Assembly (NCBI GenBank): GCA_945878865.1
Contig: CAMCUD010000002.1
Span: forward strand, 62,001 to 126,000
Source of the DNA: Bifidobacterium breve
GTDB taxonomy: Bacteria; Actinomycetota; Thermoleophilia; Solirubrobacterales; Solirubrobacteraceae
Reading direction: 5' to 3'
Length of the DNA stretch: 64,000 nt
Shown here: positions 28,678-61,683 of the stretch, piece after piece
How positions within the stretch are numbered: position 1 is the first letter of the stretch
Layout of the letters: each line of letters begins with the position of its first letter
Made by a program: the position numbers and the translations under genes
The notes under the pieces: model-generated
Told to the model about the DNA's origin: nothing
Seen by the model: the letters and a program-made list of their open reading frames with translations, nothing else
The model's database searches: none

Positions 28678-29858
28678 CGCTCGTCGCGCCGCTCGCGGCG
28701 TCGGCGACCGCCGACGTCCTGCTCGATCTCTTCATCGTGCTGCTCGCAGCGAAGATCGGCGACGAGATCTTCAAGCGCATCGGGCAGCCGGCGATCGTCG
28801 GCGAGATCCTCGCGGGCCTGATCGTCGGACCGTCGGTGCTCGGCATCGTCGAACTGGGGGAGACGCTCGAGGTCTTCGCCGAGCTCGGCGTCGTCTTCCT
28901 GCTGTTCTGGGTGGGACTGGAGACCCGGCTGAGCGACCTGCTGAAGGTGGGGCCGGTCTCCGGCGCCGCTGGCGTCCTCGGCGTGATCGTCCCCTTCGTG
29001 GGCGGCATCGGGCTCGGCCTGGCTCTGGGCAAGGACACGAGCACGGCGGTGTTCCTCGGGGCCGCGCTGGTGGCCACGAGCGTGGGTATCACCTCCGCCG
29101 TGCTGCTGGAGATGGGCGCCATGGACCGGACGGAGAGCCGGGTCATCCTGGGCGCCGCGATCGTCGACGACATCCTCGCGCTCGTGCTCGTCGGCGTCGC
29201 GACCGGGATCGCCGAGGATGGCGGGTTCGACCCGCTCGGGGCGGTCGTCGTCCTGCTCGCCGCGGTCGCGTTCCTGCTGTTCTTCGGCCTGGGCGGGACG
29301 AAGGTCCTCGCGCGCTGGCCAGGCCTGCTCACCGCGCCGCGGTTCAGCGAGTCGCCGCTCCTGCCCGCGGTGATCATCTGCCTCGGCCTCGCGGCCTTCG
29401 CGGCGGAGATCGGGCTGGCGGCGATCATCGGCGCGTTCCTGGCGGGTATGACGATTGCCGAGACGAAGGACGAGCACGCGATCGAGGAGGAGGTCGCGCC
29501 GCTGTACGCGTTCTTCCCGCCGTTCTTCTTCGCGGTGATCGGCATCCAGGTGGATCTCTCGGCGTTCACCGATCTCGGCACCGACGCGCTGCTCATCGGG
29601 GTCACGGTCCTGGCCGTGCTCACGAAGTTCGCCGGCGCGTGGCTCGGGGCCCGCCCGCTCGGGTCGCGGTCCGCGGCGTTCGTCGGCGTGGGCATGGTGC
29701 CGCGCGGCGAGGTGGGGATCATCGTCGCCTCGATCGGCCTCGCCGTCGGCGCGTTCGACGAGGAGCTGTTCGCGGTGATCGTCGGGATGTCGATCCTCAC
29801 GACGCTCGTCGTCCCGCCGATGCTCAGGCGTCTGGCGGCGGCACCGCAGCCCGGCTGA
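28674..29858 (+). CDS. CPA2-family cation/proton antiporter (Kef-type)
   Basis: The 394-residue protein has about 12 hydrophobic helices. The conserved GEILAGLIVGPSVLG segment is near 42 and the ion-binding Asp pair lies in GAAIVDDILALV. It lacks the C-terminal TrkA-N domain of KefB/KefC. It exchanges potassium or sodium for protons at the membrane. It is the third gene of a tightly coupled operon with the NhaD-type permease and the CBS protein. Its last 35 bases overlap the convergent GH31 gene. Confidence 0.88.
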   Translation: MTLVAPLAASATADVLLDLFIVLLAAKIGDEIFKRIGQPAIVGEILAGLIVGPSVLGIVELGETLEVFAELGVVFLLFWVGLETRLSDLLKVGPVSGAAGVLGVIVPFVGGIGLGLALGKDTSTAVFLGAALVATSVGITSAVLLEMGAMDRTESRVILGAAIVDDILALVLVGVATGIAEDGGFDPLGAVVVLLAAVAFLLFFGLGGTKVLARWPGLLTAPRFSESPLLPAVIICLGLAAFAAEIGLAAIIGAFLAGMTIAETKDEHAIEEEVAPLYAFFPPFFFAVIGIQVDLSAFTDLGTDALLIGVTVLAVLTKFAGAWLGARPLGSRSAAFVGVGMVPRGEVGIIVASIGLAVGAFDEELFAVIVGMSILTTLVVPPMLRRLAAAPQPG

Positions 29859-32085
29859 CGTACGTCACCTCGCGGTCGGCGCTGCACCACCACCGCCCGT
29901 CGCGCCAGCCCACCCGGGTGCCATCGGCGAGGCGGACCGCCGCGCGGCCCGTCGGGGGCTCGCCCCACAGCGTCGCCTCGAGCGGACGCTCGTCCTCCGG
30001 CGTGTCGCCGAGGCCGGTCGCGACGTGGTCCTCCGGGTAGGTCACGACGATCGAGCCTTCGCGCACGTAGACGGGGATGCCGGCGAGGCCGACCTCGGCT
30101 TCGACCTCCTGGCCACCGCGCACGCGCCGCCCGCTCCACGCCTCGATCCACGCGCCGCGCGGCAGCAGCACCTCGCGCGAGGTGGCGCCCTCTTCGAGGA
30201 TCGGCGCGACCCAGAGGGCGGGCCCGAAGCCGAACGCGTCGGCGACGCCCCAGCCGCGATCGTCGTCCGGGTCGAGCATCGAAAGCGGCCGGGTGATCGG
30301 CAGGCCGCAGCGCGCGGCGGTAGCGGCTGCCGCGCGGATGTACGGGACGAGCCGCTCGTGCAGCAGGACGTAGCCGCGGTAGACGTCGAGCGTCTCGGGG
30401 TCGTACGTCCACGGCTCCTGCTGCAGGCGGCCGTGCGCCTGCATGAGCGGGGTGAAGCAGCCGAGCTGCACCCAGCGCAGGAGCACCTCCTTCGGGCAGC
30501 GGTCGACGAGCGCGTGGCCGAGGTAGCCGCCGACGTCGTGCGACCAGTTCGAGAAGCCGGTCGACGCCGCGCTGATCGTGCACGCCACGAGCGCGCGCAG
30601 CGACCACAGGTCGCTGATCTGATCGCCCGCCCACAGCATCCCGACGCGCTGCTGGCCGCTCCAGCCCGACCGGCCGAACAGCACGCCGTCGCCGGGGTGG
30701 ACCTCGTCAAGCGCGCGCTGCATCGACTCGCGGTAGCGCTGCCCGTACTCCCACGCGTGCTCGGCGCCGCGCCGGCCGTCGTGCAGGCGCAGGTCGTCGG
30801 GGAGGTAGTAGCCCTCGCCGTCGTCGGCCTTGATCCCGGTGACACCGAGGCGCAGCGCCGCCTTGGCCTGCTCGCGCCACCAGCGCTCGGCCCGCGGGTT
30901 CGTGAAGTCCACGGGCGAGCCGGTACCCATCCACCAGCGCGCCACGTACGTCTCGTCCTCGGCATCGTGGAGGAAGTGCCCGGCGCGGCGGCCTTCCTCG
31001 TAGTTCGAGGCCGGCGCGCGGTGCAGGCGCTGTGAGCCGGGGTCGGGCGGGACCTGGCCGTCGAAGCTGTCGATGTTCACCCACGGCGTGACCCACACGA
31101 CGGTGCGCACGCCGCGGGCGCGCAGGCCGCGCACCATCCCCGGGGCGTCGGGGAACTGGTACGGGTTGAACTCCCACGTGTTGTATTGCGTCTCCCACGG
31201 GGAATCGAGCACGACGGCGTCGAGCGGGATCCCGTGCCAGCGGCACCCGTGGACGTCCTCCATGACGTCCTCCTGATGGGGGTAGACGTCACGGCTCTTC
31301 CAGAACCCGTAGCCCCATTCGGGCAGGAGCGCCGGGAGGCCGGAGCGGCGCAGGTACCGGCGCAGGCGCGCGGCCGGTGAGGGGTCGCAGAGGACCTGCG
31401 CGCGCAGCGGGCCGGCGGCGGCGCGGGCGGAGATCGTGGTGCGGTCGCCGAGGTCGAAGCGCGTGCCGTTGCCGTAGCCCTGCAGCCAGACCGCGTAGCC
31501 GCGCGAGGACTGCAGCCACGGCGCAGGCGCATAGTCGCCCTGGGGGACGCCGCCGAGCTCGAGCATCTCCGGCGGGCAGGCGGGGCCGGTGTACCGGCGG
31601 TCGGCACCCAGCTGGATGTCGCGGCCGGCGTGGTCGACGCGCAGCGCGTGGTGCGCGCCCAGGCCGCCGAAGCGCTCTTCGGCGCGGCCGTCCCACGCGA
31701 CCGCCAGACGCAGCGGCGCGTCGTCGGCGGCGAGCTCGAGCTGGAGCGTCGCGTCGTCGGTCAGGGCGAGCCGGAGCCGCCCGCGGCGCCCGCCGTTGAA
31801 GTGCACCGTGAGCGTCGCGCCGAAGCCGTCGTCGTCGAGGTCGATCCGGTCGTAGCCGATCGCGTGCTCGGGGAAGCCGCGCGCCTCGTCGCCGATCACC
31901 CCCTCGGTCACCTGGATGAACCGGTCGCGCACCACGCCGTCGCAGCACCACACGCCGAGATGGCGGATGAGCCGGCGCCCGGAACGGCGCAGGTGGATGC
32001 GGAACGGGGCGGACTTGATCTCCAGCCGAAGGTCCCCGCGCGCGACCGCGAGCGTACCCGTCTGCTGGTCGGTGAAAACGCTCAC
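29824..32085 (-). CDS. Glycoside hydrolase family 31 (alpha-glucosidase/alpha-xylosidase type)
   Basis: The 753-residue protein has the GH31 layout: an N-terminal beta domain, a TIM barrel and a C-terminal beta part. The presumed nucleophile is D421 in IKADDGEGYY and the acid/base is D488 in WAGDQISDL. WVTPWVNID and FSNWSHDVGGYLG also fit. There is no signal peptide, so it acts on cytoplasmic sugar. The GTG start follows GGAGG at a short distance. It is divergent from the PHP-glycosyltransferase operon, and an 11-base repeat array lies between them. The exact sugar is unknown. Confidence 0.88.
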   Translation of the reverse strand: MSVFTDQQTGTLAVARGDLRLEIKSAPFRIHLRRSGRRLIRHLGVWCCDGVVRDRFIQVTEGVIGDEARGFPEHAIGYDRIDLDDDGFGATLTVHFNGGRRGRLRLALTDDATLQLELAADDAPLRLAVAWDGRAEERFGGLGAHHALRVDHAGRDIQLGADRRYTGPACPPEMLELGGVPQGDYAPAPWLQSSRGYAVWLQGYGNGTRFDLGDRTTISARAAAGPLRAQVLCDPSPAARLRRYLRRSGLPALLPEWGYGFWKSRDVYPHQEDVMEDVHGCRWHGIPLDAVVLDSPWETQYNTWEFNPYQFPDAPGMVRGLRARGVRTVVWVTPWVNIDSFDGQVPPDPGSQRLHRAPASNYEEGRRAGHFLHDAEDETYVARWWMGTGSPVDFTNPRAERWWREQAKAALRLGVTGIKADDGEGYYLPDDLRLHDGRRGAEHAWEYGQRYRESMQRALDEVHPGDGVLFGRSGWSGQQRVGMLWAGDQISDLWSLRALVACTISAASTGFSNWSHDVGGYLGHALVDRCPKEVLLRWVQLGCFTPLMQAHGRLQQEPWTYDPETLDVYRGYVLLHERLVPYIRAAAATAARCGLPITRPLSMLDPDDDRGWGVADAFGFGPALWVAPILEEGATSREVLLPRGAWIEAWSGRRVRGGQEVEAEVGLAGIPVYVREGSIVVTYPEDHVATGLGDTPEDERPLEATLWGEPPTGRAAVRLADGTRVGWRDGRWWCSADREVTYVSRAAVPPPDA

Positions 32086-32125: not shown

Positions 32126-32169
32126 GTTCACAGAAAGGTCACGAGCTGGTTGCAGCAACGTCACAGAAA
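32126..32169 (+). promoter_or_regulatory. PHO-box array before the PHP-glycosyltransferase operon
   Basis: Four units start every 11 bases: GTTCAC (32126), GGTCAC (32137), GGTTGC (32148) and CGTCAC (32159). The first and last share the tail AGAAA. The array points toward the ATG at 32229 and also lies upstream of the divergent GH31 gene. Confidence 0.7.
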
Positions 32170-32228
32170 GCGTCCGTTTGCAGCCGAATATCCGTCGTGA
32201 ACGTAGGAACGAAACGACGGGAGCACCG

Positions 32229-34502
32229 ATGGTCCCCACCTCGACCAGCCGGGTCGATCTGCATGTCCACTCCACCGCCTCAGCGGTCTCCAAGCTCGGG
32301 GTCCAGCGGGCCCTCGGCCTCCCGGAGTGCGCGACGCCTCCGGAGGAGGTCTACGAGCTGGCCAAGCGCCGCGGGATGGACTTCGTGACGATCACCGATC
32401 ACGACACCATCGACGGGGCGCTCGAGCTCGCCGCGACGTACGACGACGTCTTCATCAGCGAGGAGCTCACCGCCTGGTTCAAGGGCGAGTCGCAGGCCGT
32501 CCACATCCTCACGCTCGGGATCACCCCCGAGGACCACGAGTGGCTGCAGGCGCACGCCGACGACGTCGAGCAGGTGGCCGAGTACCTCCACGAGCGCGAG
32601 ATCGCCTGCGCGCTCGCGCACCCGTTCTACGCCGTCGAGGCGCCGCTGACCCCGCGTCACCGCCGTCGCCTCGCGCAGCTCTTCCCGGTTTGGGAGGTCC
32701 GCAACGGCTCCCGCGCCAAGGAGCTCAACGCGCCGGCCGCGATCTACATCGAGACGCACGGCGGGACCGGCGTCGGCGGCACCGACGACCACGCGGGCGT
32801 CGACATCGGCCGCACGTTCACGGAGACCCCGCACGCCGAGACGTGGCAGGAGTTCCTCGCGCACATCCGCGCCGGCCAGGCGGTCGCGCGCGGCGACCAG
32901 GGCAGCGCCGCGAAGTGGGCGCACGCCGCGATGGCGCTCGCCGTCCGCTCGCTCGGGCGCGGCGAGAGCGACGAGGCGCCGAACCCGCTCGCCGTCCTGA
33001 CGATGGTCCAGCGCGTGATGAGCGAGGGCGACGCGCGCCGCGGCGCGATCGGTGCGGACCTCGGACCCGACGACGCGCGCGCCGTGCTCCGCGCGTGGCT
33101 GGACTCCGTCGACCTCGACATGAGCGAGCGCGAGCTCATCGCCCACCTCCAGGGCGACGACTTCACGCACGCCGACCTGTTCCGCCGGGCCCGGCGCACG
33201 CACGAGCGCAAGCTCGCCGCCGCCGTCGACCTCATCGTGGAGACGGCCGAGACCAACGGCGACTACGGCGCCGCCGCGGCGTCGGTGTTCGGCGCCTGCA
33301 TCAGCGCGATCCCGTACGCGCCGGCCGCCGCGTTCCTCGGGAAGGAGAAGGGCAAGCTGGTTCACCGGGAAGGCGAACCCCTCCGCGTCGCGCTCGTCGC
33401 CGACGGCGTCGGCGGCATGCACGGCGTGACGCACACGCTCGACGAGATCCGCGAACGCGGCGTGCCCGGGTTCGAGGTCGAGGTCGTCGGCACCGACCAC
33501 AACGTCGACCGGCGCCTCAGCGCGGTCGCCGAGGTCGACATCCCGTTCTACGCGGGGCTGAAGATCGGCGTCCCGTCGGTGCCCGGCATCGTCGAGACGC
33601 TCGCCGAGGGCCGCTACGACCTCGTCCACCTCTGCTCGCCCGGCCCGTCCGGCGTGGCGGCGGCGGTGATCGCGAAGATGATGGACCTGCCGGTGCTCGG
33701 CAGCTACCACACCGAGCTGGCCGCCTATGCCGGGCAGCGCAGCGGCGACGACCGCCTCGAGAACGGCATGCGGATGGCGCTCGCCGCCTTCTACGGCCAG
33801 GCCGACCACGTGCTCTCGCCGAGCCCGGCCAGCGACGAGGTGCTGCACGGCCTGGGCATCGCGCCGGAGAAGGTCGGCCGGTGGGATCGCGGCGTGGACA
33901 TCAGCCGGTTCCGCCCCGAGCTGCGCACCGAACGCGACGACGACCGGTTCGACGTCCTGTACGCCGGGCGCCTGACGAAGGAGAAGGGCGCCGACCTGCT
34001 CGCCGAGGCGTTCCTCAGCGCCCGGGCGCGCGACCCGCGGCTGCACCTCGTCCTCGCGGGCGGAGGGCCGGAGGAGGACCAGCTGCGCGAGCGCCTCGGC
34101 GAGCACGCGACGTTCCTCGGTTGGCAAGAGGGGGACGACCTCGCGCGCACGTACGCGAACGCCGACCTCTTCCTGTTCGCCAGCCGGACGGACACGTTCG
34201 GCCAGGTGCTCCTCGAGGCGCAGGCCAGCGGCCTGGCGGTCGTGGCCGTCAAGGAAGGCGGACCGACGTCGATTATCGAGGATGGCGTGAGTGGGCGGTT
34301 GTGCCCGCCGGACGCCGAAGCGCTCGCGGCCACGGTCAACGAGCTCGCCTCCCAACCCCTCGTGCGCGAGCGGCTGGCAATCGGTGGGCTCGCGGCGGTC
34401 CGTGAGCGGACATGGGACGCGGCCCTGCGTCGCCTCGCAGACGGATACCACCAGGCACTGAACGTTCGCGAGGCAGGCGCTGAGGTGCGCCGTGCCGCGT
34501 AA
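32229..34502 (+). CDS. PHP-domain phosphoesterase fused to a GT4 glycosyltransferase
   Basis: The 757-residue protein joins two enzymes. Residues 1 to about 220 form a PHP domain with DLHVHSTAS (H12, H14), TITDHDTIDG (56 on), ALAHPF and GGTDDHAG, the metal ligands of the YciV/RNase AM group. After a helical join, residues from about 375 form a GT4 enzyme with GSYHTELAAYAG, YAGRLTKEKG and the DX7E motif in DTFGQVLLEAQ, like PimB or SqdX. The frame opens at 32178, but ATG 32229 follows GGGAG by six bases. It heads a four-gene operon behind a PHO-box array. Role in glycolipid or glycan making is inferred. Confidence 0.85.
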   Translation: MVPTSTSRVDLHVHSTASAVSKLGVQRALGLPECATPPEEVYELAKRRGMDFVTITDHDTIDGALELAATYDDVFISEELTAWFKGESQAVHILTLGITPEDHEWLQAHADDVEQVAEYLHEREIACALAHPFYAVEAPLTPRHRRRLAQLFPVWEVRNGSRAKELNAPAAIYIETHGGTGVGGTDDHAGVDIGRTFTETPHAETWQEFLAHIRAGQAVARGDQGSAAKWAHAAMALAVRSLGRGESDEAPNPLAVLTMVQRVMSEGDARRGAIGADLGPDDARAVLRAWLDSVDLDMSERELIAHLQGDDFTHADLFRRARRTHERKLAAAVDLIVETAETNGDYGAAAASVFGACISAIPYAPAAAFLGKEKGKLVHREGEPLRVALVADGVGGMHGVTHTLDEIRERGVPGFEVEVVGTDHNVDRRLSAVAEVDIPFYAGLKIGVPSVPGIVETLAEGRYDLVHLCSPGPSGVAAAVIAKMMDLPVLGSYHTELAAYAGQRSGDDRLENGMRMALAAFYGQADHVLSPSPASDEVLHGLGIAPEKVGRWDRGVDISRFRPELRTERDDDRFDVLYAGRLTKEKGADLLAEAFLSARARDPRLHLVLAGGGPEEDQLRERLGEHATFLGWQEGDDLARTYANADLFLFASRTDTFGQVLLEAQASGLAVVAVKEGGPTSIIEDGVSGRLCPPDAEALAATVNELASQPLVRERLAIGGLAAVRERTWDAALRRLADGYHQALNVREAGAEVRRAA

Positions 34503-35646
34503 CACGGCCACCATCCTTCGCCGGGGAACGGCGACGCCGCGGCCGCGTCCTGCGCGCCGCGGCGTCCACCCGGCGCGGCTGCGCGTCGTCGACGTCGCGC
34601 TGTTCTACGGCGAGCGCAGCGGAGGCATCCGCACGTACCTCGACAACAAGGTCGCCTGGGCGCACGGCACGCCGGGCATCGAGCATCACCTCGTCGTGCC
34701 CGGTCCCAAGCGGCGACACGAGGGCGGCCGCCACGAGCTGCCGTCCTTTCGCGTCGCGGCGGCCAACGGGTACCGGCTGCCGCTCGGCGTCGGCGGCCTG
34801 AAGGACACGCTGCGCGCGCTGCGACCGGACGTCGTGCTGCTGCACGACCCGTTCTGGGGTCCGCTCGGCGTCTGTCAGGTCAGCCACGATCTCGGCGCAC
34901 GGGTCGTCGCCGTCCACCACGGCTCCAGCGCGCTGGACGCCGCCGGGATGCCGGGCCCCGACGCGCCGTGGCGCGCGGCGTTCCGCCGGTGGATGCACCA
35001 CGCCTACCAGGAGGTCGACGCGGTCATGTCCGCGGTGGATACGCGCGAGGACAGCGGTCGCGACGCCACGATCCCCCTGCGCTTCGGACTGCATCCCGCG
35101 TTCGCTCCCGTGCCCGGCATGCCCCCGCGCGGCGACCACGTCCTCTACGTCGGGCGGATCGCCCGGGAGAAGGGGGTCTTCGAGCTCGTGCGGGCCGCGG
35201 CCCAGGCGCCCGAGCCGTGGCCGCTGCGCCTCGTGGGAACCGGCCCGGCGCTCGATCGGGTCAAAACGCTGGCGGCGGAACTCGGTCTGGGCCGGCGGCT
35301 GCAACTTCGCCCCTACATCCGTGACCCGGCGCACCTCGCCGAGAGCTACCGCAAGGCGTCCGTAGTGGTCATGCCCGGGGCCCACGAGACGTTCGGCCTC
35401 GTGGGGTTCGAGGCGGCTGCCAGCGGCGCGGCCACCGTGGCGTGCTCGACCGCGCCGAGCGCGGCGGTCGCCGGCTCGCTCGTGCAGACGTTCCCGCCGG
35501 GTGACGTCGGCGAGCTCGTCACCGCGATCCAGGCAGCACGGGCTGCGACGCCGAACCTCGACGCCGCCGCGGCGCTCGCCCGCGGGATGACGTGGCGGCG
35601 CGCGCTGGACGCCGAGCTCGCCGACCTCCGGGAGCTCGCCCGATGA
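34492..35646 (+). CDS. GT4 glycosyltransferase
   Basis: The 384-residue protein has the GT-B fold, with GERSGGIRTYLDNK in the N-terminal domain, LYVGRIAREKG at the domain joint and the EX7E motif in HETFGLVGFEAAASG. It transfers a sugar from a nucleotide donor. Its GTG lies 11 bases before the end of the PHP-glycosyltransferase gene, and its stop overlaps the next gene. The two glycosyltransferases probably add successive sugars to one acceptor. Confidence 0.88.
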   Translation: MPRNTATILRRGTATPRPRPARRGVHPARLRVVDVALFYGERSGGIRTYLDNKVAWAHGTPGIEHHLVVPGPKRRHEGGRHELPSFRVAAANGYRLPLGVGGLKDTLRALRPDVVLLHDPFWGPLGVCQVSHDLGARVVAVHHGSSALDAAGMPGPDAPWRAAFRRWMHHAYQEVDAVMSAVDTREDSGRDATIPLRFGLHPAFAPVPGMPPRGDHVLYVGRIAREKGVFELVRAAAQAPEPWPLRLVGTGPALDRVKTLAAELGLGRRLQLRPYIRDPAHLAESYRKASVVVMPGAHETFGLVGFEAAASGAATVACSTAPSAAVAGSLVQTFPPGDVGELVTAIQAARAATPNLDAAAALARGMTWRRALDAELADLRELAR

Positions 35647-36440
35647 GCGTGGCGACGAGCGGCCCGGCCGGCCGTCATCTCGCGCTCGTCCCGGACCCGG
35701 CGCCGCGGCGCCAGGCGCCGGTGCGCACCGACGGGCCGCGGCTCGCCGTCGCGATCCACGACGTCGCGCCGGCGACCTACGAGCGGTGCGCGCTGCTGCG
35801 CGACTGGCTCGACGACCACGGGGTCGAGCGCGTCACGCTCCTCGTCATCCCGGCGCCGGACCTCCATCCGTTCCAGGACCGCAGCCCGGAGCTCGCGGGC
35901 TGGCTGCGCGAGCGCATCGCCCAGGGCGACGCTGTCGCCCAGCATGGCCTGCAGCACCGCCAGTCGCGGCGCGGCGCGCCCGTGCGTCAGGCCGTGGCGC
36001 GCTGGCAGGCCCGCGACGCGGCGGAGTTCGTCGGGCTCGACGCGGGGGAGACCCGCCGCGCCGTCGAATCCGGTCGGCGGCTGCTCAAGCTCGCAGGCGT
36101 CGAACCGCGGGGATTCGTCGCGCCCGGCTACGCGTACACCCCGTCGCTGCGCCAGGCGCTGGCAGGCCGCTTCGACTGGTGGGCCGATCTGCTGCGCCTG
36201 CACCGCGGAGGCCGAGCCACCGTGGCGCCGGCGCTCACGCTCGGGACCACGACCCCGCTCAAGCGCGCGCTCTCGCCCCTCATCGTCCGCGGGATGGCCG
36301 CCGCCGGCGGGCCGCTGCTGCGGGTCGACCTGCACCCCGCCGACCTCGACCACAGCCGGCACATCCTCGCCCTCGATTCGGTGCTCGGTCGTGCTGGAAG
36401 GCGCACCTCCGTCACGTACGACGATCTCCTCGCCGCCTGA
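35643..36440 (+). CDS. DUF2334-type polysaccharide deacetylase-like protein
   Basis: The 265-residue protein has the DUF2334 form of the polysaccharide deacetylase fold: LAVAIHDVAPATYE at the first metal site, VTLLVIP, and AQHGLQHRQ as the second metal site. It would remove acyl groups from a sugar. No signal peptide is visible, which is unusual for secreted deacetylases. ATGA couples it to the preceding glycosyltransferase. The acceptor is presumably the glycan made by the two preceding enzymes. Confidence 0.8.
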   Translation: MSVATSGPAGRHLALVPDPAPRRQAPVRTDGPRLAVAIHDVAPATYERCALLRDWLDDHGVERVTLLVIPAPDLHPFQDRSPELAGWLRERIAQGDAVAQHGLQHRQSRRGAPVRQAVARWQARDAAEFVGLDAGETRRAVESGRRLLKLAGVEPRGFVAPGYAYTPSLRQALAGRFDWWADLLRLHRGGRATVAPALTLGTTTPLKRALSPLIVRGMAAAGGPLLRVDLHPADLDHSRHILALDSVLGRAGRRTSVTYDDLLAA

Positions 36441-37707
36441 GCCGCCGCGCCATGTCGCCGCGCCGGCGCGCCTCGGTCCTCCCGACGGGTGCGGTGAGCG
36501 CGACCGCCGGCTGTGGGTGGCGTCTGAACGGGCCCTGCGGGCCAACTGGCGGCAGGGGCGCCGCCGCGATGGCACGCCGTACGCGTTCACCTGCCCGGCC
36601 CCGCCCCGCTATCGCCATATGTGGCACTGGGACAGCTGCTTCCACGCGATCGCCTGGCGGCGGCTGGACCCGGCGCGCGCACGGGCCGAGCTGCGCACCG
36701 TCCTGCGCTCGGGCCGGCCGGACGGCTTCCTGCCGCACACCGCGTTCTGGCACTGGCCCGCCGGCTGGCGGCGCGCGCCGTTCTACGCGACGAGATCGGT
36801 GCTCGGCAGCTGGATCACCGAGACGATCAACCCGCCGCTGCTGCCCTTCGCGTGGGAGCTCGTCGCCGACGCCTCACCGGACCATCCGGAGTTTCGCGCC
36901 GAAGCGATCGACGCGCTCGGCACGCACCTGGACTGGCTCGCGCACCACCGCGACCCCGACGGCGACGGCCTGCTGACGATCGTCGCGCCCGACGAGTCCG
37001 GCCTCGACGACGCGCCCAAGTACGACGCCGTCTACGGCCGGATGAGCCACGACCGGCTCGGCTACTTCTGGCTCATGGAGCGTTCGCGCCGCGCGGCGTG
37101 GCATTCCCACACGATCATCGAGCGCTGGGACCACCACGTCGAGGACGTCCTCGTCAACGTCGCGTACGCCTTGTCGCTGCGGGCCCTCGGGCGGATGAGC
37201 GGCGAGCCGGGCTGGACGGAGCGTGCGCGGCGCACCGAGGCGGCGCTCCTGGAGAAGTGCCTCGACCCGGGGACCGGCCTGTTCTTCGACCTCCACGGCC
37301 CCCGTGAGGTGCCGGTGCGCGTCTCGACGTGGTCGGCTCTGGCGCCGCTCGCGCTGGAGACGCTGCCTGAGGACGTGCGCCGGCGGCTCGTCGAAGAGCA
37401 TGTCCTGCATCCCGGCCGGTACCGCGCGCCATGCGGGATCCCGTCGGTGGCGATCGAGGAACCGGCGTTCCATCCGGGCTTCGACCGCTGGCGGACCTGG
37501 CGCGGCCCCTCGTGGGTCAACACGGCGTGGTTCCTCGTGCCGCCGATGCGGCGGCTGGGCTACGAGGAGGAGGCGGCGCGGATCGTCGGCGGGCTCGCCG
37601 ACGCGGCGGACCGCGACGGCCTGCGCGAGTACTACCACCCGTTCACCGGCAAGGGGCTCGCCTCGCGGGACTTCGGGTGGTCGACGCTGCTGCTCGACCT
37701 GGTCTGA
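36391..37707 (+). CDS. GH63-like glycoside hydrolase (alpha/alpha barrel)
   Basis: The protein of about 438 residues has segments typical of the GH63 group that includes glucosylglycerate and mannosylglycerate hydrolases: MWHWDSCFHAIAWR, DGFLPHTAFWHWP, GPSWVNTAWFLV and YYHPFTGKGLASRDFGWS. The start is uncertain. GTG 36391 is the best in-frame choice but overlaps the deacetylase gene by 50 bases and lacks a ribosome site; GTG near 36516 is the next. It is the last gene of the operon. The substrate is inferred only from family likeness. Confidence 0.78.
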   Translation: MLEGAPPSRTTISSPPEPPRHVAAPARLGPPDGCGERDRRLWVASERALRANWRQGRRRDGTPYAFTCPAPPRYRHMWHWDSCFHAIAWRRLDPARARAELRTVLRSGRPDGFLPHTAFWHWPAGWRRAPFYATRSVLGSWITETINPPLLPFAWELVADASPDHPEFRAEAIDALGTHLDWLAHHRDPDGDGLLTIVAPDESGLDDAPKYDAVYGRMSHDRLGYFWLMERSRRAAWHSHTIIERWDHHVEDVLVNVAYALSLRALGRMSGEPGWTERARRTEAALLEKCLDPGTGLFFDLHGPREVPVRVSTWSALAPLALETLPEDVRRRLVEEHVLHPGRYRAPCGIPSVAIEEPAFHPGFDRWRTWRGPSWVNTAWFLVPPMRRLGYEEEAARIVGGLADAADRDGLREYYHPFTGKGLASRDFGWSTLLLDLV

Positions 37708-37738: not shown

Positions 37739-38611
37739 ATGGAGGCCTCACCGCTCGCCATGGTCGCGCTGGGCCTCGGCCTCGCGATCATCATGTTCGC
37801 GCTCGGGACGACGCTCACGGCGGCGGACTTCCGGCGGGTGATCACCGCGCCGCGGGGCGTCGCGGTCGGCATCGTCAACCTCGTGCTCATCGCGCCGCTG
37901 CTCGCGTTCGCGATGGCCGAGCTGTTCGACCTGGAGCCGACCCTGGCTGTCGGGCTCGTGCTGCTCGGCGCCGCGCCCGGGGGCGCGCTCGCGAACCTCC
38001 TCACGCATCTCGCGCGGGGCGACACGGCCCTGTCGATCACGATGACCGGGGTGAGCAGCGTCGCGTCGGTCGTGACCGTCCCGCTCTACCTCGGCCTCGC
38101 CACCGCGTACTTCGGCGCCGACGACATCGGCGATGACCTGTCGATGCCGCTCATCGTGGTGCGGACGTTCTTCGGCATCGCGCTCCCGCTCGGTGTGGGG
38201 ATGTGGGCGGCGTCACGCCGGCCCGGGTGGGTCCAGGCGAATCAGCGGGCGATCCGCGCCGCAGCGATCGGGACGTTCGCGCTCGTCGTGGTGATCGCGA
38301 TCGTCACGGAGCACGCCACGGTCCTCGACCATCTCGGCCCGGTCGTCGGCGCGGCCCTCGGGCTGAACGTCGCGGCGATGGCCGTGAGCTTCGGCGTCGC
38401 GAAGGTGGTGCGGCTCGACGGCCCGCAGTCGACGGCGATAGCGATCGAGCTCGGCGTCCACAACGCGGCGCTCGCGGTGGCGATCGGCGCATCCCTCGAC
38501 GAGGAGCTCGCCGTGCCCGCCGCGGTCTACAGCACGTTCATGCTCGTGACGGCCGGAGCGTTCGCCCGCGTGATGTACCGGCGCAATGCCGAGGCGCTCA
38601 CAGCGCCCTGA
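37739..38611 (+). CDS. Bile acid:sodium symporter (BASS) family transporter
   Basis: The 290-residue protein has 9-10 hydrophobic helices and the BASS segments FALGTTLTAADFRRV, GAAPGGALANLLTHLARGD and IAIELGVHNAALAVAIG. The family takes up organic anions, often with sodium, and includes transporters of keto acids and steroids. It has its own likely leaderless promoter and overlaps the convergent synthase gene by 14 bases. The substrate is unknown. Confidence 0.85.
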   Translation: MEASPLAMVALGLGLAIIMFALGTTLTAADFRRVITAPRGVAVGIVNLVLIAPLLAFAMAELFDLEPTLAVGLVLLGAAPGGALANLLTHLARGDTALSITMTGVSSVASVVTVPLYLGLATAYFGADDIGDDLSMPLIVVRTFFGIALPLGVGMWAASRRPGWVQANQRAIRAAAIGTFALVVVIAIVTEHATVLDHLGPVVGAALGLNVAAMAVSFGVAKVVRLDGPQSTAIAIELGVHNAALAVAIGASLDEELAVPAAVYSTFMLVTAGAFARVMYRRNAEALTAP

Positions 38612-39923
38612 CGGGTGGCAGGTCGTGGGCGTCGTCGGGGCGCACCATGAGGACCTGGTGGATCGTGATGCCGCCGTGCTCGAAGCCCTGCGCCGCGCCG
38701 GCGTGGTGCGCGCGCCAGACGCGCTCGCGCTGCTCGCCGATCGCCGCGATCACGCCCTCGCGGTCGGCCGCCATGTTCCGCAGCCACGCGCGCAGCGTCA
38801 GCGCGTAGTGCTCGCGCAGTGACTCGACGTCACGGACCTCCAGGCCCTGGTCCTCCATGAGACCGACGAGGTCGCCCAGGCGCAGCAGCTCGCCGTCGGG
38901 GAACACGTACCGCGCCGTGAAGCTGTCCGGCCCGCCCGCGTCGGAGTACAGCCGGCCGATGGCGTGGTTGAGCACCAGCCCGCCGGGCGTGACCAGCGAG
39001 CGCAGCTGCGTGAGATAGGCGGGCATCTGGTCGCGGCCGACGTGCTCGGACATCCCGATGCTCACGACCTTGTCGAACGGGCCGTCGCGCACGTCGCGGT
39101 AGTCCTGGACGCGCACCTCGACCCGGTCCTCGACGCCGGCGGCGCGCACCCGCTCGCGCGCGAGCTCCGCCTGCGCCTCGGAGATCGTCACCCCGACCGC
39201 GTGGACGCCGTACCGCGTCGCCGCGTGGATGAGCATCGAGCCCCAGCCGCATCCGATGTCCAGCAGGCGCTCGCCCTCCTTGAGCCGGAGCTTCTGGCAG
39301 ACCCGGTCGAGCTTGCGCTCCTGCGCGGCTTCGAGCGACTCGTCCGCAGATGCGAAGACCGCGCACGAGTAGACCATCGACGGCCCCAGCTGGATCTCGT
39401 AGAACCGGTTCGACACGTCGTAGTGGAACGCGATGGCCGCCTTGTCGCGGCGCAGCGAATGCAGCCGACCGGGCAGCTTGGCCTCGGACTCGGGGATCGG
39501 CGGGCGGCGCAGCATCCGCGCGCCGCCGATGCGGGCCGCGTGGGCGAACGCGCGGATCTTCGCGCGCCGGTCGAGCGCGAGCCCGCCGTAGCGCTCACGC
39601 AGGAGCAGCGCCTGCTCGAAGTCGCCTTCGAGATCGATCGCCCCGGTGATCCACGCGCGGATGAGCCCGAGCGAGTCGGGACGGTGCAGCAGGTGGGCCA
39701 GGGCGTCCTGCCCGAAGAGGATCGTCAGCGGTGGCTGGCCGTCCTCCGTCGGCCCGAGCTCGCTGCCGTCCCAGAACCGCATGCCGAACGGGCGTCGCGC
39801 CAGCTGCGGCGACAGCTCGAGCAGGAGCTCCTCGATCTCCGCGGCGACGCCGGTCGCCGCACTCGCTTCAGGACCCCGAGGAGCCTGCGTCGCATCGGTG
39901 ATGCTGTGCGAGGTCGTTGCGAT
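38598..39923 (-). CDS. Cyclopropane-fatty-acyl-phospholipid synthase family methyltransferase
   Basis: The protein has the CFA synthase layout: an N-terminal lipid-binding part (FWDGSELGP, RAWITGAIDLEGDFEQAL) and a SAM methyltransferase with LLDIGCGWGSMLIHA near 219 and FHYDVSNRFYEIQLG before it. It methylates unsaturated acyl chains in membrane phospholipids. High third-base GC shows coding upstream of the first in-frame ATG (39782), but no ATG, GTG or TTG is available there. ATC 39923 follows TAAGGT by seven bases, so I place the start there with doubt. Confidence 0.8.
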   Translation of the reverse strand: MATTSHSITDATQAPRGPEASAATGVAAEIEELLLELSPQLARRPFGMRFWDGSELGPTEDGQPPLTILFGQDALAHLLHRPDSLGLIRAWITGAIDLEGDFEQALLLRERYGGLALDRRAKIRAFAHAARIGGARMLRRPPIPESEAKLPGRLHSLRRDKAAIAFHYDVSNRFYEIQLGPSMVYSCAVFASADESLEAAQERKLDRVCQKLRLKEGERLLDIGCGWGSMLIHAATRYGVHAVGVTISEAQAELARERVRAAGVEDRVEVRVQDYRDVRDGPFDKVVSIGMSEHVGRDQMPAYLTQLRSLVTPGGLVLNHAIGRLYSDAGGPDSFTARYVFPDGELLRLGDLVGLMEDQGLEVRDVESLREHYALTLRAWLRNMAADREGVIAAIGEQRERVWRAHHAGAAQGFEHGGITIHQVLMVRPDDAHDLPPVRAL

Positions 39924-39930
39924 GTCAAGG

Positions 39931-39936
39931 ACCTTA
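39931..39936 (-). promoter_or_regulatory. -10 element before the synthase gene
   Basis: TAAGGT on the minus strand ends seven bases before ATC 39923. No ribosome site follows, as for the other leaderless genes. Confidence 0.4.
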
Positions 39937-39967
39937 CCCCCGGAGGGTGGATCCGAAAAGGGGATCG

Positions 39968-40717
39968 TCAGCCGCTGATCTGGCGGGTGATCCGCCCGCC
40001 CGGCGTGGCGACGAACGCCTTGCCGCCCTTGACGAACGCCGACCACTGGCCGCCGCCGATGTCGAGGAACACCGCGTAGTCGAAGGCGGAGGCGGGCCGG
40101 CGGGCGCGCCCGGTCGCGCTGCGCACGATCCGCTGCGGCGCGCCCGGGTCGATCTGCGACCACGCGAAGCCCGTGAGCCCGCCGATGGGCGTGGGCGTCG
40201 TGCTGAGGACGCGCACCTCGCCGTCCCAGGTGGCCTGGGCGCTGCGCAGACGGCCGTCGCGCAGGACGACCTGGACGTCGACGCGCTCGGCGGCGACGCG
40301 GACGTTGCGCGGGCGGCCCTTCGCGTCGGCGCGCAGGCGGCGCAGCGCGACCGCGAGGTTGGCGCGGCGCAGGAGCGAGCCGCGCTGCAGCCCGGAGGGC
40401 GGGCCGGTGGGCGCCGGCGGGGGCGTCGCTGCCGGCTCCGTCTCGGGCTCGGGATCGCTTGGCGCCTCGGTGACCTCGGTCTCGGGCGCCGCCGCGGTCG
40501 ACGCGGCTGCCGGGGCCTTCGACTCCTCGCCGGCCGACAGGTACACCAGCGCGCCGCCTAGGCCGAGCAGGACGAGGACGACCACGACGGCGACGAGGAT
40601 CGGACCGCCGCGCCGGGGAGGGCGGGCGCCCGGCATGCCGGGTGTCTGCGAGCCCGAGGAGCTCAGGCCCGCGAGCGGGTCCTCGTCGACCTTGTTGCCG
40701 AAGGCGTCGTAGGGCAC
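39968..40717 (-). CDS. Membrane-anchored protein of unknown function
   Basis: The 249-residue protein has an N-terminal cytoplasmic part rich in Gly, Ser and Pro, one membrane helix (GPILVAVVVVLVLLGLGGAL, about 37-56), a Glu/Pro/Thr-rich outer linker and a C-terminal folded part with VRVAAERVDVQVVLRDGRL and DYAVFLDIGGGQWSAF. I do not recognise the outer domain. GTG 40717 lies six bases after TAGGCT (40724-40729, minus strand), so it is probably leaderless. Confidence 0.65.
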   Translation of the reverse strand: MPYDAFGNKVDEDPLAGLSSSGSQTPGMPGARPPRRGGPILVAVVVVLVLLGLGGALVYLSAGEESKAPAAASTAAAPETEVTEAPSDPEPETEPAATPPPAPTGPPSGLQRGSLLRRANLAVALRRLRADAKGRPRNVRVAAERVDVQVVLRDGRLRSAQATWDGEVRVLSTTPTPIGGLTGFAWSQIDPGAPQRIVRSATGRARRPASAFDYAVFLDIGGGQWSAFVKGGKAFVATPGGRITRQISG

Positions 40718-40771
40718 GGGCGCAGCCTAGATCCTGCGGCCACGGATCACACGGCGGACGGCGCAAGTCCA

Positions 40772-40785
40772 GGCCGGCGCCGGCC
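40772..40785. promoter_or_regulatory. Perfect 14-base GC palindrome before the sulfotransferase gene
   Basis: GGCCGGCGCCGGCC is fully symmetric and lies just before TTACCT (40787-40792), the likely -10 for ATG 40799. It may be a protein-binding site, or chance in GC-rich DNA. Confidence 0.35.
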
Positions 40786-40798
40786 GTTACCTGTGGTG

Positions 40799-41677
40799 AT
40801 GAGCACCGCGCTTCACCCGCCGGCGACGCCGCTCGGTGGGCCCAAGTGGCGGCTCGAGCAGCTGAGCGACCGCCAACGCTCACGCGCCGGGAGGATCACG
40901 CTCCGTGGCACGTGCCGCGACCTCCAGACCTACGTGACCTTCATCGGGTACCCCCGCAGCGGCCACTCGATGGTCGGCTCACTGCTCGACGCCCATCCGC
41001 GTGCCGTAGTGGCGCACGAGCTCGACGCGCTCCGGTACGTCGAAGAGGGCTACGACCGGTGGCGGCTGTTCCACCTCATCCTCAGCAACGCCAAGCGGAC
41101 CGCGCGCCGCGGACGCGTCCAGACGGGGTACTCCTACGCCGTGCCGGGTCAGTGGCAGGGACGGTGGGAACACCTCCAGGTCATCGGCGACAAGAAGGGC
41201 GGCCGCTCGACGATCCGCCTTGACGACGACCCGTCGCTCATCGACCGGCTCGCGCAGACGGTCGCGCTGCCCTCCAAATACGTGCTGATCGTGCGCAACC
41301 CCTTCGACAACGTCGCGACGATCTCGCGACGGGACGTCGAGGAGCAGGGCGTGGCGGCCGAGGGCGCCCTCGATCATGCCATCCGCCGGTACGTCGACCT
41401 CACCGAGCGGGTGGAACGGTTTCTCGCGCGCACTCCCGACGCCGACGTTCACCTCGCGCAGCACGAGCAGTTCATCGCGTCGCCTCGTGAGGCGCTTGGC
41501 GCGCTGTGCGCGTTCCTCGGCCTCAAGGCCGAGGACGAGTACCTGGAGGCGTGCGCGGCGCTCCTCTACGAGGCGCCGAGCCGCAGCCGCGACCGGATCG
41601 CGTGGTCGGACGACCAGCGCGCCGAGCTTGACGCGCTCATCGCCCGCCACTCGTTCCTGGCGGGCTACACCCTCTAG
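40799..41677 (+). CDS. Sulfotransferase-like protein
   Basis: The 292-residue protein has the PAPS 5'-phosphosulfate-binding pattern YPRSGHSMVGSLLDAHP at residues 51-67 and a second segment YVLIVRNPFDNVATISRRD that fits the 3'-phosphate-binding part. It may transfer sulfate to a glycan, lipid or small molecule. The frame opens at GTG 40793, but ATG 40799 fits the -10 spacing better. Its stop shares CTAG with the convergent cell-wall gene. The acceptor is unknown. Confidence 0.75.
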   Translation: MSTALHPPATPLGGPKWRLEQLSDRQRSRAGRITLRGTCRDLQTYVTFIGYPRSGHSMVGSLLDAHPRAVVAHELDALRYVEEGYDRWRLFHLILSNAKRTARRGRVQTGYSYAVPGQWQGRWEHLQVIGDKKGGRSTIRLDDDPSLIDRLAQTVALPSKYVLIVRNPFDNVATISRRDVEEQGVAAEGALDHAIRRYVDLTERVERFLARTPDADVHLAQHEQFIASPREALGALCAFLGLKAEDEYLEACAALLYEAPSRSRDRIAWSDDQRAELDALIARHSFLAGYTL

Positions 41678-50418: not shown

Positions 50419-50504
50419 GAAGGTGGGGACTCCTTGGAGCATGGGCCGGTGATCCGGTCCTCGGAGGGACGGCGAGTCCGGCAGTCTCGTCACGGCGGCG
50501 CGAC

Positions 50505-50548
50505 CTCCGGTGAACGACCCGTGTTCAGCTGGAGAAGATCTGGTGAAC
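50505..50548 (-). promoter_or_regulatory. PHO-box array 1 of pstS1
   Basis: On the minus strand four 11-base units begin GTTCAC (50548), CTTCTC (50537), GAACAC (50526) and GTTCAC (50515). The outer units are perfect and the inner ones degenerate. The array points toward pstS1. Confidence 0.8.
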
Positions 50549-50579
50549 AGCGGCGGGGGGCCGCCGAGTCGGCTGGCCG

Positions 50580-50623
50580 AGCTGGTGAACAACTTGTGAC
50601 GTGCTCGTGTTCGTCCCGTGAAC
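50580..50623 (-). promoter_or_regulatory. PHO-box array 2 of pstS1
   Basis: On the minus strand four 11-base units begin GTTCAC (50623), GAACAC (50612), CGTCAC (50601) and GTTCAC (50590). The arrangement repeats array 1: perfect outer units and weaker inner ones. Confidence 0.8.
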
Positions 50624-54633: not shown

Positions 54634-54666
54634 TTTCACGATTTCTTCACACCTGATTCACGGCGG
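54634..54666 (+). promoter_or_regulatory. PHO-box array before DNA-binding-domain gene 2
   Basis: Three units start every 11 bases: TTTCAC (54634), CTTCAC (54645) and ATTCAC (54656). They point toward ATG 54713. Confidence 0.75.
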
Positions 54667-54712
54667 GGTAACGCCCGACCCACGCGGGCCCGGCACTGTT
54701 GCCCGTGAGCTG

Positions 54713-55075
54713 ATGGAGACTGCTGCGTCGCCGGAGGAGGTCCTGAGCATCGGGCCCGTGGAGATCCGCCCCGCGGGAGGTCTCGTGACGCTCAGCGGCC
54801 GGACGCTGGTGCTCTCGGTCCGGGAATTCGCCTTGCTGGTCGCAATGGCCCGGAAAGCGGGGCGTATCGTTTCCCGGGGTGAGCTCTACGCGCTGGTCTG
54901 GGGCGCTCCGCTGCGCGCGGGCGATCGCTCCGTCGACGTCTACGTCCACAAGCTCCGCGTGAAGCTCGAGGAGGGGGCGCCGGGCTGGGTGTTCATCCAC
55001 ACGCACGTCGGCTTCGGCTATCGCTTCGCACCGGAGCCTTCACATCTTTTTCACAAGACGGCCACAACTCGATAA
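54713..55075 (+). CDS. OmpR/PhoB-type DNA-binding domain without receiver (copy 2)
   Basis: The 120-residue protein is again only the winged helix: SVREFALLVAMARKAGRIVS, RGELYALVWG, recognition helix DRSVDVYVHKLRVKL and wing FIHTHVGFGYRF. Its own promoter region carries a PHO-box array. The codons for its last residues (SHLFHKTATTR) form most of the PHO-box array of pstS2. It may compete with, or assist, the full regulator at PHO boxes and act as a feedback element. Confidence 0.82.
   Translation: METAASPEEVLSIGPVEIRPAGGLVTLSGRTLVLSVREFALLVAMARKAGRIVSRGELYALVWGAPLRAGDRSVDVYVHKLRVKLEEGAPGWVFIHTHVGFGYRFAPEPSHLFHKTATTR
55038..55070 (+). promoter_or_regulatory. PHO-box array before pstS2, inside the previous gene
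   Basis: Units start every 11 bases: CTTCAC (55038), TTTCAC (55049) and GGCCAC (55060). A fourth position (55071, GATAAC) is weak. The array overlaps the last codons of the DNA-binding-domain gene and points toward pstS2. Confidence 0.75.
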
Positions 55076-55148
55076 CAGACTCAGGTCGCGCTGCTGGAAG
55101 GCTGCCACGGCTTCTATGGGAGACCAGAACCATCTAGGAGGAACGTCT

Positions 55149-56258: not shown

Positions 56259-56287
56259 AGACGCATCTACGTCACTGAGGAAACGTC

Positions 56288-59033: not shown

Positions 59034-59037
59034 TCCC

Positions 59038-60778: not shown

Positions 60779-60822
60779 GGGATGGCGATCCGCCGCTACA
60801 TCGCTTTAGACTCATGACCGCC

Positions 60823-61683
60823 ATGACGGATCGCACCCTGGTCGGCCGCCCCACCGACCTCACCAGCGCGCCCAGCCCTCAGGGCGCACCGCTTCGGATC
60901 GCTGTCATCGACGCGGACTCGGGGTTCCTGCAGGTGCTGACGAAGCGCCTTGACCGCCTCGGCTGGGAGCACCGGGTCGTTCCCGGTCCCGTGCCGATCG
61001 AAACCGTCGTGGCCATGCGGCTCGGCGCGATCGTCATCGACCTCGCGACCCTGGGCACGCAGGCCTGGGACTACCTCGAGCGTCTGTGCAACGCCGTCCC
61101 GGGTCTGGGCGTCGTCGTCTGCACCGGGCAGTCCACCGTCGCCCAGCGCGTCCGCGGCCTGCGCATGGGCGCCGACGACTGGGTGACGAAGCCCTGCCAC
61201 CCGGAGGAGCTCATCGCCCGCGTGGAGGCCGTCGTGCGCCGTCGCCGCCGGACCGAGGCGCCCGCCGCGTCGAAGCCCGTTCAGGCCGGGGAGGTCGAGG
61301 TTCGCGCCGACCAGTTCCAGGCCTTCGTCGACGGCCGGTCGATCGACCTGACCCGCCGCGAGTTCGAGCTCATCCACCTGCTCGCCGAGGCCGAGGGCCG
61401 CGTGCTCGAGCGCGAGGAGATCTACCAGCGCGTCTGGGGCTACGCCATGGCCCGCGGCGACCGCTCGGTCGACGTGTTCGTGCGCAAGCTGCGGCAGAAG
61501 CTCGAGAAGGCGTCGCCGAACTGGCGCTACATCCACACGCACTTCGGCGTCGGCTACCGCTTCTCGCCCGAGCGCGTGGACGTGGAGCCCGCCGGCGCGC
61601 TCGAGGCCGAGCTGGCCGAGGTCGCCGCGCAGGTCGCGCGGGGCGAGACGCCCGCCGGCGTGCCCGGCGTGCCGGTCGAGTAG
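60823..61683 (+). CDS. PhoB/PhoP-type response regulator
   Basis: The 286-residue protein has an N-terminal receiver with acidic pair D30 and D32, phosphoacceptor D73 in VIDLATLG, T101 and K123, followed by an OmpR-type winged helix (about 158-250) with recognition helix DRSVDVFVRKLRQKL. A C-terminal tail of about 35 residues is unusual. ATG 60814 is in frame, but ATG 60823 better fits the -10 TAGACT. Placed after pstSCAB-phoU, it is the likely master regulator of phosphate starvation. Its kinase is not in the window. Confidence 0.88.
   Translation: MTDRTLVGRPTDLTSAPSPQGAPLRIAVIDADSGFLQVLTKRLDRLGWEHRVVPGPVPIETVVAMRLGAIVIDLATLGTQAWDYLERLCNAVPGLGVVVCTGQSTVAQRVRGLRMGADDWVTKPCHPEELIARVEAVVRRRRRTEAPAASKPVQAGEVEVRADQFQAFVDGRSIDLTRREFELIHLLAEAEGRVLEREEIYQRVWGYAMARGDRSVDVFVRKLRQKLEKASPNWRYIHTHFGVGYRFSPERVDVEPAGALEAELAEVAAQVARGETPAGVPGVPVE

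What the first reader, a model, noticed from the sequence alone, without database searches (positions are those of the whole stretch)
32126..37707. Phosphate control of a PHP-glycosyltransferase, deacetylase and hydrolase operon
An array of four 11-base units sits before an operon that encodes a PHP phosphoesterase fused to a GT4 enzyme, a second GT4 enzyme, a DUF2334 deacetylase-like protein and a GH63-like hydrolase. Many bacteria replace phospholipids or phosphate-rich wall polymers with sugar-based ones when phosphate is scarce. The operon could be such a remodelling pathway, with one protein holding both phosphate removal and sugar transfer. I know of no described system with this makeup.
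Basis: inference. Interest (0 to 1): 0.8.

Follow-up and report, generated by a model that had tools for sequence, protein, structure and literature searches.

The report
Phosphate-starvation operon fusing phosphoesterase and glycosyltransferase
A soil-bacterium operon that almost certainly switches on when phosphate runs out encodes an unusual two-in-one enzyme (a phosphate-removing domain joined to a sugar-adding domain) with a second sugar-adding enzyme and a deacetylase, most likely to make an amino-sugar membrane lipid that saves phosphate.

Summary
Four 11-base units (32126-32169; unit 3 degenerate) precede a PHP-GT4 fusion, a second GT4, a DUF2334 deacetylase and an MGH1/GH63-like hydrolase. 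The array is a PHO box by several tests. 37 of 41 promoters of this gene across the order keep the TTCAC spacing (0.04 expected). The pattern occurs 4 times in the 4.96-Mb genome: here, at both pst operons of the window, and before a PstS-like protein. A matrix built from this gene's promoters in other genomes ranks the window's pst promoters 2nd to 5th. In another family the fusion gene lies between pstSCAB-phoU-ppx and ppk1. Phosphate control is therefore strongly supported, though not measured. The product is inferred. For both glycosyltransferases and the deacetylase the best curated match is GpgS/GpgD (glucosaminyl-phosphatidylglycerol synthesis), far below cut-off. My best reading is PlcP-Agt-like remodelling: the PHP domain takes phosphate from a lipid precursor, the fused GT4 adds a sugar, and GT4b plus deacetylase add glucosamine, giving a cationic glycolipid. 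A soluble glycoside is the main rival. The fusion extends to other families of the class and another class. I found no paper describing it. It is a new variant of a known kind.

The parts
32126..32169 (+). PHO box: four 11-nt direct repeat units (GTTCACAGAAA GGTCACGAGCT GGTTGCAGCAA CGTCACAGAAA), third unit degenerate
   Evidence: Read directly; only perfect genome match of the footprint; conserved upstream of orthologues; top hit of a matrix trained on other genomes
32187..32192 (+). Probable -10 region (about AATATC); A and T at matching offsets are 94% and 91% conserved among orthologous promoters
   Evidence: Column conservation; position inferred; no sigma-70 consensus hit
32229..34502 (+). 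PHP phosphoesterase domain (about 1-225), helical linker (227-377), GT4 glycosyltransferase (385-757)
   Evidence: Pfam/NCBIfam; AF2 model pLDDT 86.7; H12 H14 D57 H58 E79 H131 D186 H188 invariant in 26, 41 and 23 sequences
34492..35646 (+). Second GT4 glycosyltransferase (GT4b), EX7E motif conserved
   Evidence: Pfam PF00534; best NCBIfam GlcN_PG_synth 131.6 bits, below cut-off 480; conserved residues
35643..36440 (+). DUF2334 deacetylase (GpgD-like), ATGA overlap with GT4b
   Evidence: PF10096 E 5e-22; NCBIfam GlcNAc_PG_deac 94.7 bits, cut-off 280; catalytic-type D and HxxxH kept in most relatives
36441..37707 (+). MGH1-like (GH63-type) glycoside hydrolase; start codon uncertain
   Evidence: PF22422 E 1.5e-67; conserved PDESG..DD and REYY motifs
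29824..32085 (-). Divergent GH31 glycosidase, the most frequent neighbour of PHP-GT4 in the order
   Evidence: PF01055; head-to-head in 18 of 40 relatives; catalytic aspartates conserved
50509..50547 (-). PHO box of the second pst operon (site proximal to pstS)
   Evidence: Score 28.2 with the cross-genome matrix; genome pattern hit
50584..50622 (-). PHO box of the second pst operon (site distal to pstS)
   Evidence: Score 24.3
54635..54673 (+). PHO box before a DNA-binding-domain gene and pstSCAB-phoU
   Evidence: Score 30.7; genome pattern hit
55039..55077 (+). PHO box directly before pstSCAB-phoU
   Evidence: Score 34.2
60814..61683 (+). Response regulator (receiver + Trans_reg_C) at the end of the pst cluster: candidate PhoP/PhoB
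   Evidence: Pfam; PHO-like repeats just upstream at 60750-60788, score 16.0 against a random maximum of 14.2; role inferred

Best explanation
The operon belongs to the Pho regulon. When phosphate is scarce a PhoP/PhoB-type response regulator binds the four-unit box and switches it on together with both pst operons (motif and context shown; binding and expression inferred). The operon then makes an amino-sugar glycolipid that replaces phospholipid. The PHP domain removes phosphate from a lipid precursor such as phosphatidate or a phospholipid; the fused GT4 transfers a first sugar to the diacylglycerol; GT4b adds N-acetylglucosamine; the DUF2334 enzyme deacetylates it to a positively charged glucosamine. 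This does in one polypeptide what PlcP and Agt do as two proteins, followed by GpgSD/HexSD-like steps. The GH31 and MGH1-like hydrolases would trim or recycle the sugar part. All enzymatic steps are inferred from family membership.
For: PHO box: conserved spacing in 37/41 promoters; 4 sites genome-wide, three in the pst region of the window and one before a phosphate-binding-type protein; matrix from other genomes finds the pst promoters; in 101 family genomes 50 sites against 1 control, and of 30 fetched 17 precede PHP-GT4 and 8 pst genes. Context: PHP-GT4 follows pstSCAB-phoU and a ppx-like gene and precedes a ppk1-like gene in another family; next to PhoD, 5'-nucleotidase and GDPD genes in another class. 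Lipid link: best curated match of both GT4s is GlcN_PG_synth and of the deacetylase GlcNAc_PG_deac, repeated in distant relatives; gene order PHP-GT4, GT4b, deacetylase kept at 31-39% identity. Analogues: Pho-box-controlled plcP-agt (PMC8528852), gpgSDF (PMC12713373), hexSDF (PMC10128005).
Against: Curated scores are far below equivalog cut-offs (125/480, 132/480, 95/280). No flippase gene in the operon, unlike gpgF/hexF. By fold the GT4 is nearest to MshA, sucrose-phosphate synthase and BshA, which act on soluble acceptors. The PHP domain's nearest solved relatives are TrpH-like phosphoesterases, not lipid phosphatases. GT4b and the deacetylase are missing beside many orthologues, so the product must vary or be completed elsewhere. 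No expression or lipid data.
Confidence: 0.5

Rival explanations
1. Soluble glycoside pathway: the GT4 domain makes a glycosyl phosphate (as MshA or sucrose-phosphate synthase do) and the PHP domain removes its phosphate; GT4b and the deacetylase finish a small aminoglycoside or compatible solute, which the MGH1-like and GH31 enzymes break down.
For: Nearest solved folds of the GT4 are MshA (Z 36.5), sucrose-phosphate synthase (36.0) and BshA (34.7); MshA and BshA products are deacetylated next (own knowledge); a phosphatase joined to a GT fits a GT/phosphatase pair; the neighbouring hydrolase is nearest to glucosylglycerate hydrolase.
Against: Curated family scores favour the glucosaminyl-lipid synthase over MshA for both GT4s (125 vs 81; 132 vs 56 bits) and the deacetylase matches only GlcNAc_PG_deac. 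An MshC-like gene occurs in relatives with and without a PHP-GT4 match, so it is not tied to a thiol pathway. Pho control has no obvious reason here.
Confidence: 0.2
2. The operon decorates phosphatidylglycerol with glucosamine (true GlcN-PG route), changing membrane charge without replacing phosphate lipids.
For: Both GT4s and the deacetylase are homologues of GpgS and GpgD.
Against: Scores far below the equivalog cut-offs; no GpgF; a phosphate-sparing response would not be expected to use a phospholipid acceptor; the PHP domain has no role.
Confidence: 0.13
3. Phosphate-free wall polymer (teichuronic-acid type) replacing a phosphate-rich one.
For: Weak TuaC similarity (45.8 bits of 550); GalU-like nucleotidyltransferase gene after PHP-GT4 in one genus; precedent of phosphate-controlled teichuronic acid in Bacillus (own knowledge).
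Against: No polymerase, flippase, undecaprenyl-phosphate transferase or exporter in the operon; TuaC is one of the weaker hits.
Confidence: 0.12
4. The box is a site of another OmpR-type regulator and the operon does not answer to phosphate.
For: OmpR-family regulators in general bind direct repeats of about 10-11 bp (own knowledge); M. tuberculosis PhoP uses TCACAGC-N4-TCACAGC (quoted in PMC9019756).
Against: The same motif marks both pst operons and almost nothing else in the genome, and the gene sits in phosphate clusters in other families.
Confidence: 0.04

Closest known systems
PlcP-Agt lipid remodelling pathway (Proteobacteria, e.g. P. aeruginosa PA3219/PA3218; PMC8528852, PMC4796936)
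   Same: Phosphoesterase plus GT4 expressed under Pho control; expected result is glycolipid in place of phospholipid
   Different: Phosphoesterase here is a PHP domain, not the calcineurin-like PlcP, and is fused to the GT4; extra GT4b and deacetylase; substrate untested
gpgSDF, glucosaminyl-phosphatidylglycerol synthesis (PMC12713373)
   Same: GT4 and DUF2334/COG3233-type deacetylase side by side; best curated HMM match for both GT4s and the deacetylase
   Different: Well below equivalog cut-offs; no flippase gene; additional PHP-GT4 fusion; Pho box
hexSDF with UgtA, aminohexosyl-hexosyl-diradylglycerol of C. difficile (PMC10128005, PMC11898633)
   Same: Logic of two sequential sugar transfers followed by deacetylation of the second sugar
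   Different: HexS is annotated as an MGDG-synthase type enzyme; control is by HexRK; no PHP domain
Actinobacterial PHO boxes (Streptomyces PhoP, 11-nt direct repeat units, GTTCACC core; PMC6283541)
   Same: Same unit length, same TTCAC core, direct repeats, degenerate units tolerated, found at pst promoters
   Different: Four-unit array with characteristic weak third unit; not tested with protein
MshA/MshB and BshA/BshB thiol pathways
   Same: GT4 of very similar fold followed by a deacetylase
   Different: Deacetylase family differs (DUF2334, not LmbE); no link to MshC distribution; Pho control

Membership tests
Pho regulon (PHO box) | 11-nt direct repeat units with TTCAC/GTTCAC core upstream of the gene | tested here: met
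Pho regulon (PHO box) | Same motif at pst promoters of the same genome | tested here: met
Pho regulon (PHO box) | Binding by PhoP/PhoB and induction in low phosphate | not testable with these tools
   Needs EMSA or ChIP and RNA-seq
gpgSDF (GlcN-PG synthesis) | GpgS and GpgD equivalog scores above NCBIfam cut-off | tested here: not met
   125/132 of 480 and 94.7 of 280 bits
gpgSDF (GlcN-PG synthesis) | GT4 and DUF2334/COG3233-type deacetylase adjacent in one operon | tested here: met
gpgSDF (GlcN-PG synthesis) | Flippase gene gpgF in the operon | tested here: not met
   The four operon genes and the next gene (SBF symporter) are not flippases
PlcP-Agt pathway | PlcP (calcineurin-like metallophosphoesterase) paired with the GT | tested here: not met
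   The phosphoesterase is a PHP domain
PlcP-Agt pathway | GT4 that uses diacylglycerol as acceptor | not testable with these tools
   Needs enzyme assay; reference Agt sequences could not be fetched for a tree
PlcP-Agt pathway | Pho box in the promoter | tested here: met
PHP phosphoesterase superfamily | Metal-ligand pattern HxH, DH, E, H, DxH | tested here: met
   H12 H14 D57 H58 E79 H131 D186 H188 invariant, also in relatives at 35-41% identity; the aspartate a few residues after HxH in TrpH-like enzymes (own knowledge) is Ser18 here
PHP phosphoesterase superfamily | Pfam PHP gathering score | tested here: inconclusive
   PF02811 20.0 of 26.4 bits (below); PF13263 PHP_C 22.5 of 21.3 (above)
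GT4 glycosyltransferases | Glycos_transf_1 domain and GT-B fold with (D/E)X7E | tested here: met
Glucosylglycerate/mannosylglycerate hydrolase (MGH1-like) | PF22422 domain; NCBIfam glucosylglycerate hydrolase cut-off | tested here: inconclusive
   Domain met (229 of 27 bits); equivalog not met (140.9 of 550)
Mycothiol-type pathway (MshA) | MshA equivalog score | tested here: not met
   80.7 of 462.5 bits

The most novel reading that the evidence does not exclude
PHP-GT4 is a single-polypeptide phospholipid-to-glycolipid converter: its PHP domain strips phosphate from a membrane lipid precursor and hands the diacylglycerol to its own GT4 domain. This would be an actinobacterial, independently evolved counterpart of PlcP-Agt, with amino-sugar lipids as the phosphate-saving product in Thermoleophilia.
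Probability: 0.33. Interest if true: 0.8.

Novelty: new variant of a known kind. Interest (0 to 1): 0.62.

Why it matters
Phosphate-starvation lipid remodelling is described for proteobacteria, cyanobacteria and mycobacteria. I found no described pathway for Thermoleophilia. If right, these bacteria use a different phosphoesterase fold, fused to the glycosyltransferase, and probably make a cationic glycolipid. The same fusion, with similar neighbours, reaches other families and another class of the phylum, so one enzyme assay would inform many genomes. The work also gives a usable PHO-box matrix for a group with no published regulon that I found.

Tried and rejected
Strict Streptomyces-type pattern GTTCAY-N5-GTTCAY found only one other site in the genome; the lineage's own box has a weak third unit. 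Tandem Repeats Finder does not list the array (too degenerate). Mycothiol reading: an MshC-like gene (about 277 of 485 bits) is in relatives with and without PHP-GT4, so no link. PHP domain folded alone without alignment gave a useless model (pLDDT 37) and was not searched; the fold search of the full model returned only the GT half in its top rows, so the PHP half rests on sequence and on pLDDT of about 90 in the full model. No clear PHO array upstream of the fusion in the distant families, so Pho control there rests on gene context only. Sigma-70 consensus scan found no promoter. No paper found on PHP-GT4 fusions in lipid remodelling or on phosphate lipids of Thermoleophilia; the library is open-access only. 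The whole genome was not available as a file, so genome-wide statements rest on pattern searches. My notebook first counted 18 PHP-GT4 and 7 pst sites among the fetched loci; the recount is 17 and 8.

Full report
WHAT IS THERE. The window lies in a 4.96-Mb genome of a Solirubrobacterales bacterium; the nearest named relative of the gene is Svornostia abyssi J379 (94% identity). On the + strand, PHP-GT4 (32229-34502), GT4b (34492-35646), a DUF2334 deacetylase (35643-36440) and an MGH1/GH63-like hydrolase (to 37707) follow each other with overlapping or near-touching ends. A GH31 gene (29824-32085) runs the other way. Between the two start codons lies GTTCACAGAAA GGTCACGAGCT GGTTGCAGCAA CGTCACAGAAA at 32126-32169.

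THE ARRAY IS A PHO BOX. (a) Footprint: I took the DNA before the PHP-GT4 start in 40 relatives plus the window. The pattern TTCAC-N6-KTCAC-N17-KTCAC, that is units 1, 2 and 4 of a four-unit 11-nt array, scores at least 13 of 15 in 37 of 41, against 0.04 expected from dinucleotide shuffles; unit 3 is weak but its final C is invariant, and a -10-like A-N3-T follows at fixed distance in most. The relatives share ancestry, so the count is not 41 independent events, but the coding identity goes down to 57% and the surrounding intergenic DNA is little conserved. (b) Specificity: with up to one mismatch the pattern occurs four times in the whole genome, reversed control zero: here (the only perfect one), before each of the two pst operons in the window, and before a PstS-like protein on another contig. 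(c) Cross-prediction: a matrix built only from PHP-GT4 promoters of other genomes, run over the 64-kb window, ranks this site first (41.1 bits) and four pst-promoter sites second to fifth (34.2 to 24.3); the maximum in 30 random windows is 14.2. A sixth site (16.0) lies before a response-regulator gene at the end of the pst cluster, a candidate PhoP. (d) Other genomes: in 101 family genomes the perfect pattern gives 50 sites against 1 control; of 30 fetched, 17 precede PHP-GT4, 8 pst genes, and others a PAP2 phosphatase (Pfam), a gene that reads like 5'-nucleotidase and one near a Ppx/GppA-like gene (the last two are my reading). This matches the Streptomyces PHO box of 11-nt units with a GTTCACC core (PMC6283541, PMC9019756).

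GENE CONTEXT. In family f3 PHP-GT4 lies downstream of pstSCAB-phoU (BLAST) and a ppx-like gene and upstream of a ppk1-like gene (the last two by my reading). In another class of the phylum it sits near PhoD genes, in one case also 5'-nucleotidase and GDPD genes. In the order PHP-GT4 was found in 94 of 201 genomes at E below 1e-60. Among 40 neighbourhoods GH31 is head-to-head in 18, the deacetylase present in 17, GT4b in 14 and the MGH1-like hydrolase in 10 (one partial). The order PHP-GT4, GT4b, deacetylase returns in another family of the class at 31-39% identity, so that trio is old and the hydrolase a late addition. In one genus PHP-GT4 is followed by a gene that reads like GalU, consistent with a UDP-sugar donor.

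THE FUSION ENZYME. PHP metal-ligand residues H12, H14, D57, H58, E79, H131, D186 and H188 are invariant, also in relatives at 35-41% identity. The nearest curated relatives of the PHP part are CehA/McbA metallohydrolases and 3',5'-nucleoside bisphosphate phosphatase; nearest solved structures are TrpH-like phosphoesterases. The model (pLDDT 86.7) shows the PHP domain, a helical linker and a GT-B domain; the GT-B part matches MshA, sucrose-phosphate synthase, BshA and PimA folds. By curated profiles the best match of both GT4s is N-acetylglucosaminyl-PG synthase and of the deacetylase N-acetylglucosaminyl-PG deacetylase, all below cut-off, and this repeats in distant relatives.

HOW IT MOST LIKELY WORKS. 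Shown by sequence: membership of the PHO regulon's motif class, domain content, conserved active-site residues, conserved gene order. Inferred: PhoP binding, low-phosphate induction, lipid acceptor, sugars, PHP substrate, role of the hydrolases. The closest working analogue is PlcP-Agt, in which a phosphoesterase frees diacylglycerol from phospholipid and a GT4 glycosylates it under Pho control (PMC8528852, PMC4796936). The deacetylase half resembles GpgSD and HexSD, which place N-acetylglucosamine on a lipid and deacetylate it (PMC12713373, PMC10128005, PMC11898633). The operon would combine both ideas. Where GT4b is missing but the deacetylase remains (for example L055, L061, L074), PHP-GT4 itself may transfer GlcNAc.

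WHAT WEIGHS AGAINST. Distances to characterised enzymes are large, no flippase is in the operon, and the best fold matches act on soluble acceptors. A soluble glycoside with PHP acting on a glycosyl phosphate is therefore kept as the main rival. The membership claims 'is gpgSDF' and 'is PlcP-Agt' fail defining features; 'works like' remains open.

VERDICT. Phosphate control: about 0.93. Envelope amino-glycolipid by the stated route: about 0.5. It is a new variant of a known kind.

Noticed in passing
window 53559-53949 and 54716-55075: Two short ORFs that hold only a Trans_reg_C (OmpR/PhoB-type) DNA-binding domain and no receiver, one of them between two PHO boxes before pstS.
   Followed up: partly
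window 60750-60788 and 60814-61683: PHO-like repeats on the minus strand just before a receiver plus Trans_reg_C response regulator at the end of the pst cluster: candidate autoregulated PhoP.
   Followed up: partly
window 46723-50736 (-) and 55116-59814 (+): Two complete pst operons lie within 13 kb, one with phoU, with an FtsH gene between them.
   Followed up: partly
L084 1500-3035: PHO box before a 474-aa PBP-like (PstS-type) protein on another contig of the same genome, next to a long proline-rich protein.
   Followed up: partly
L085 1501-2442, L090 1501-2490: Perfect PHO box before a xylose-isomerase-like TIM-barrel protein in two relatives; it lies about 5.4 kb upstream of PHP-GT4.
   Followed up: partly
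L063 5178-7449: In genome G133 (same genus) the PHP-GT4 match is split at residue about 610 into two frames, a frameshift or sequencing error.
   Followed up: no
window 29824-32085: A GH31 glycosidase is the most constant neighbour of PHP-GT4 in the order, yet its link to a phosphate response is unexplained; nearest curated relatives are alpha-xylosidase YicI and YihQ-type.
   Followed up: partly
L056 7980-9741, L079 5264-6106: PHP-GT4 is followed by a GalU-like nucleotidyltransferase (and in L056 a GHMP-kinase-like gene), read by eye.
   Followed up: no
window 38598-40883 (-): A cyclopropane fatty-acid synthase (CMAS) gene lies convergent to the operon end, with an SBF-type symporter between.
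   Followed up: no
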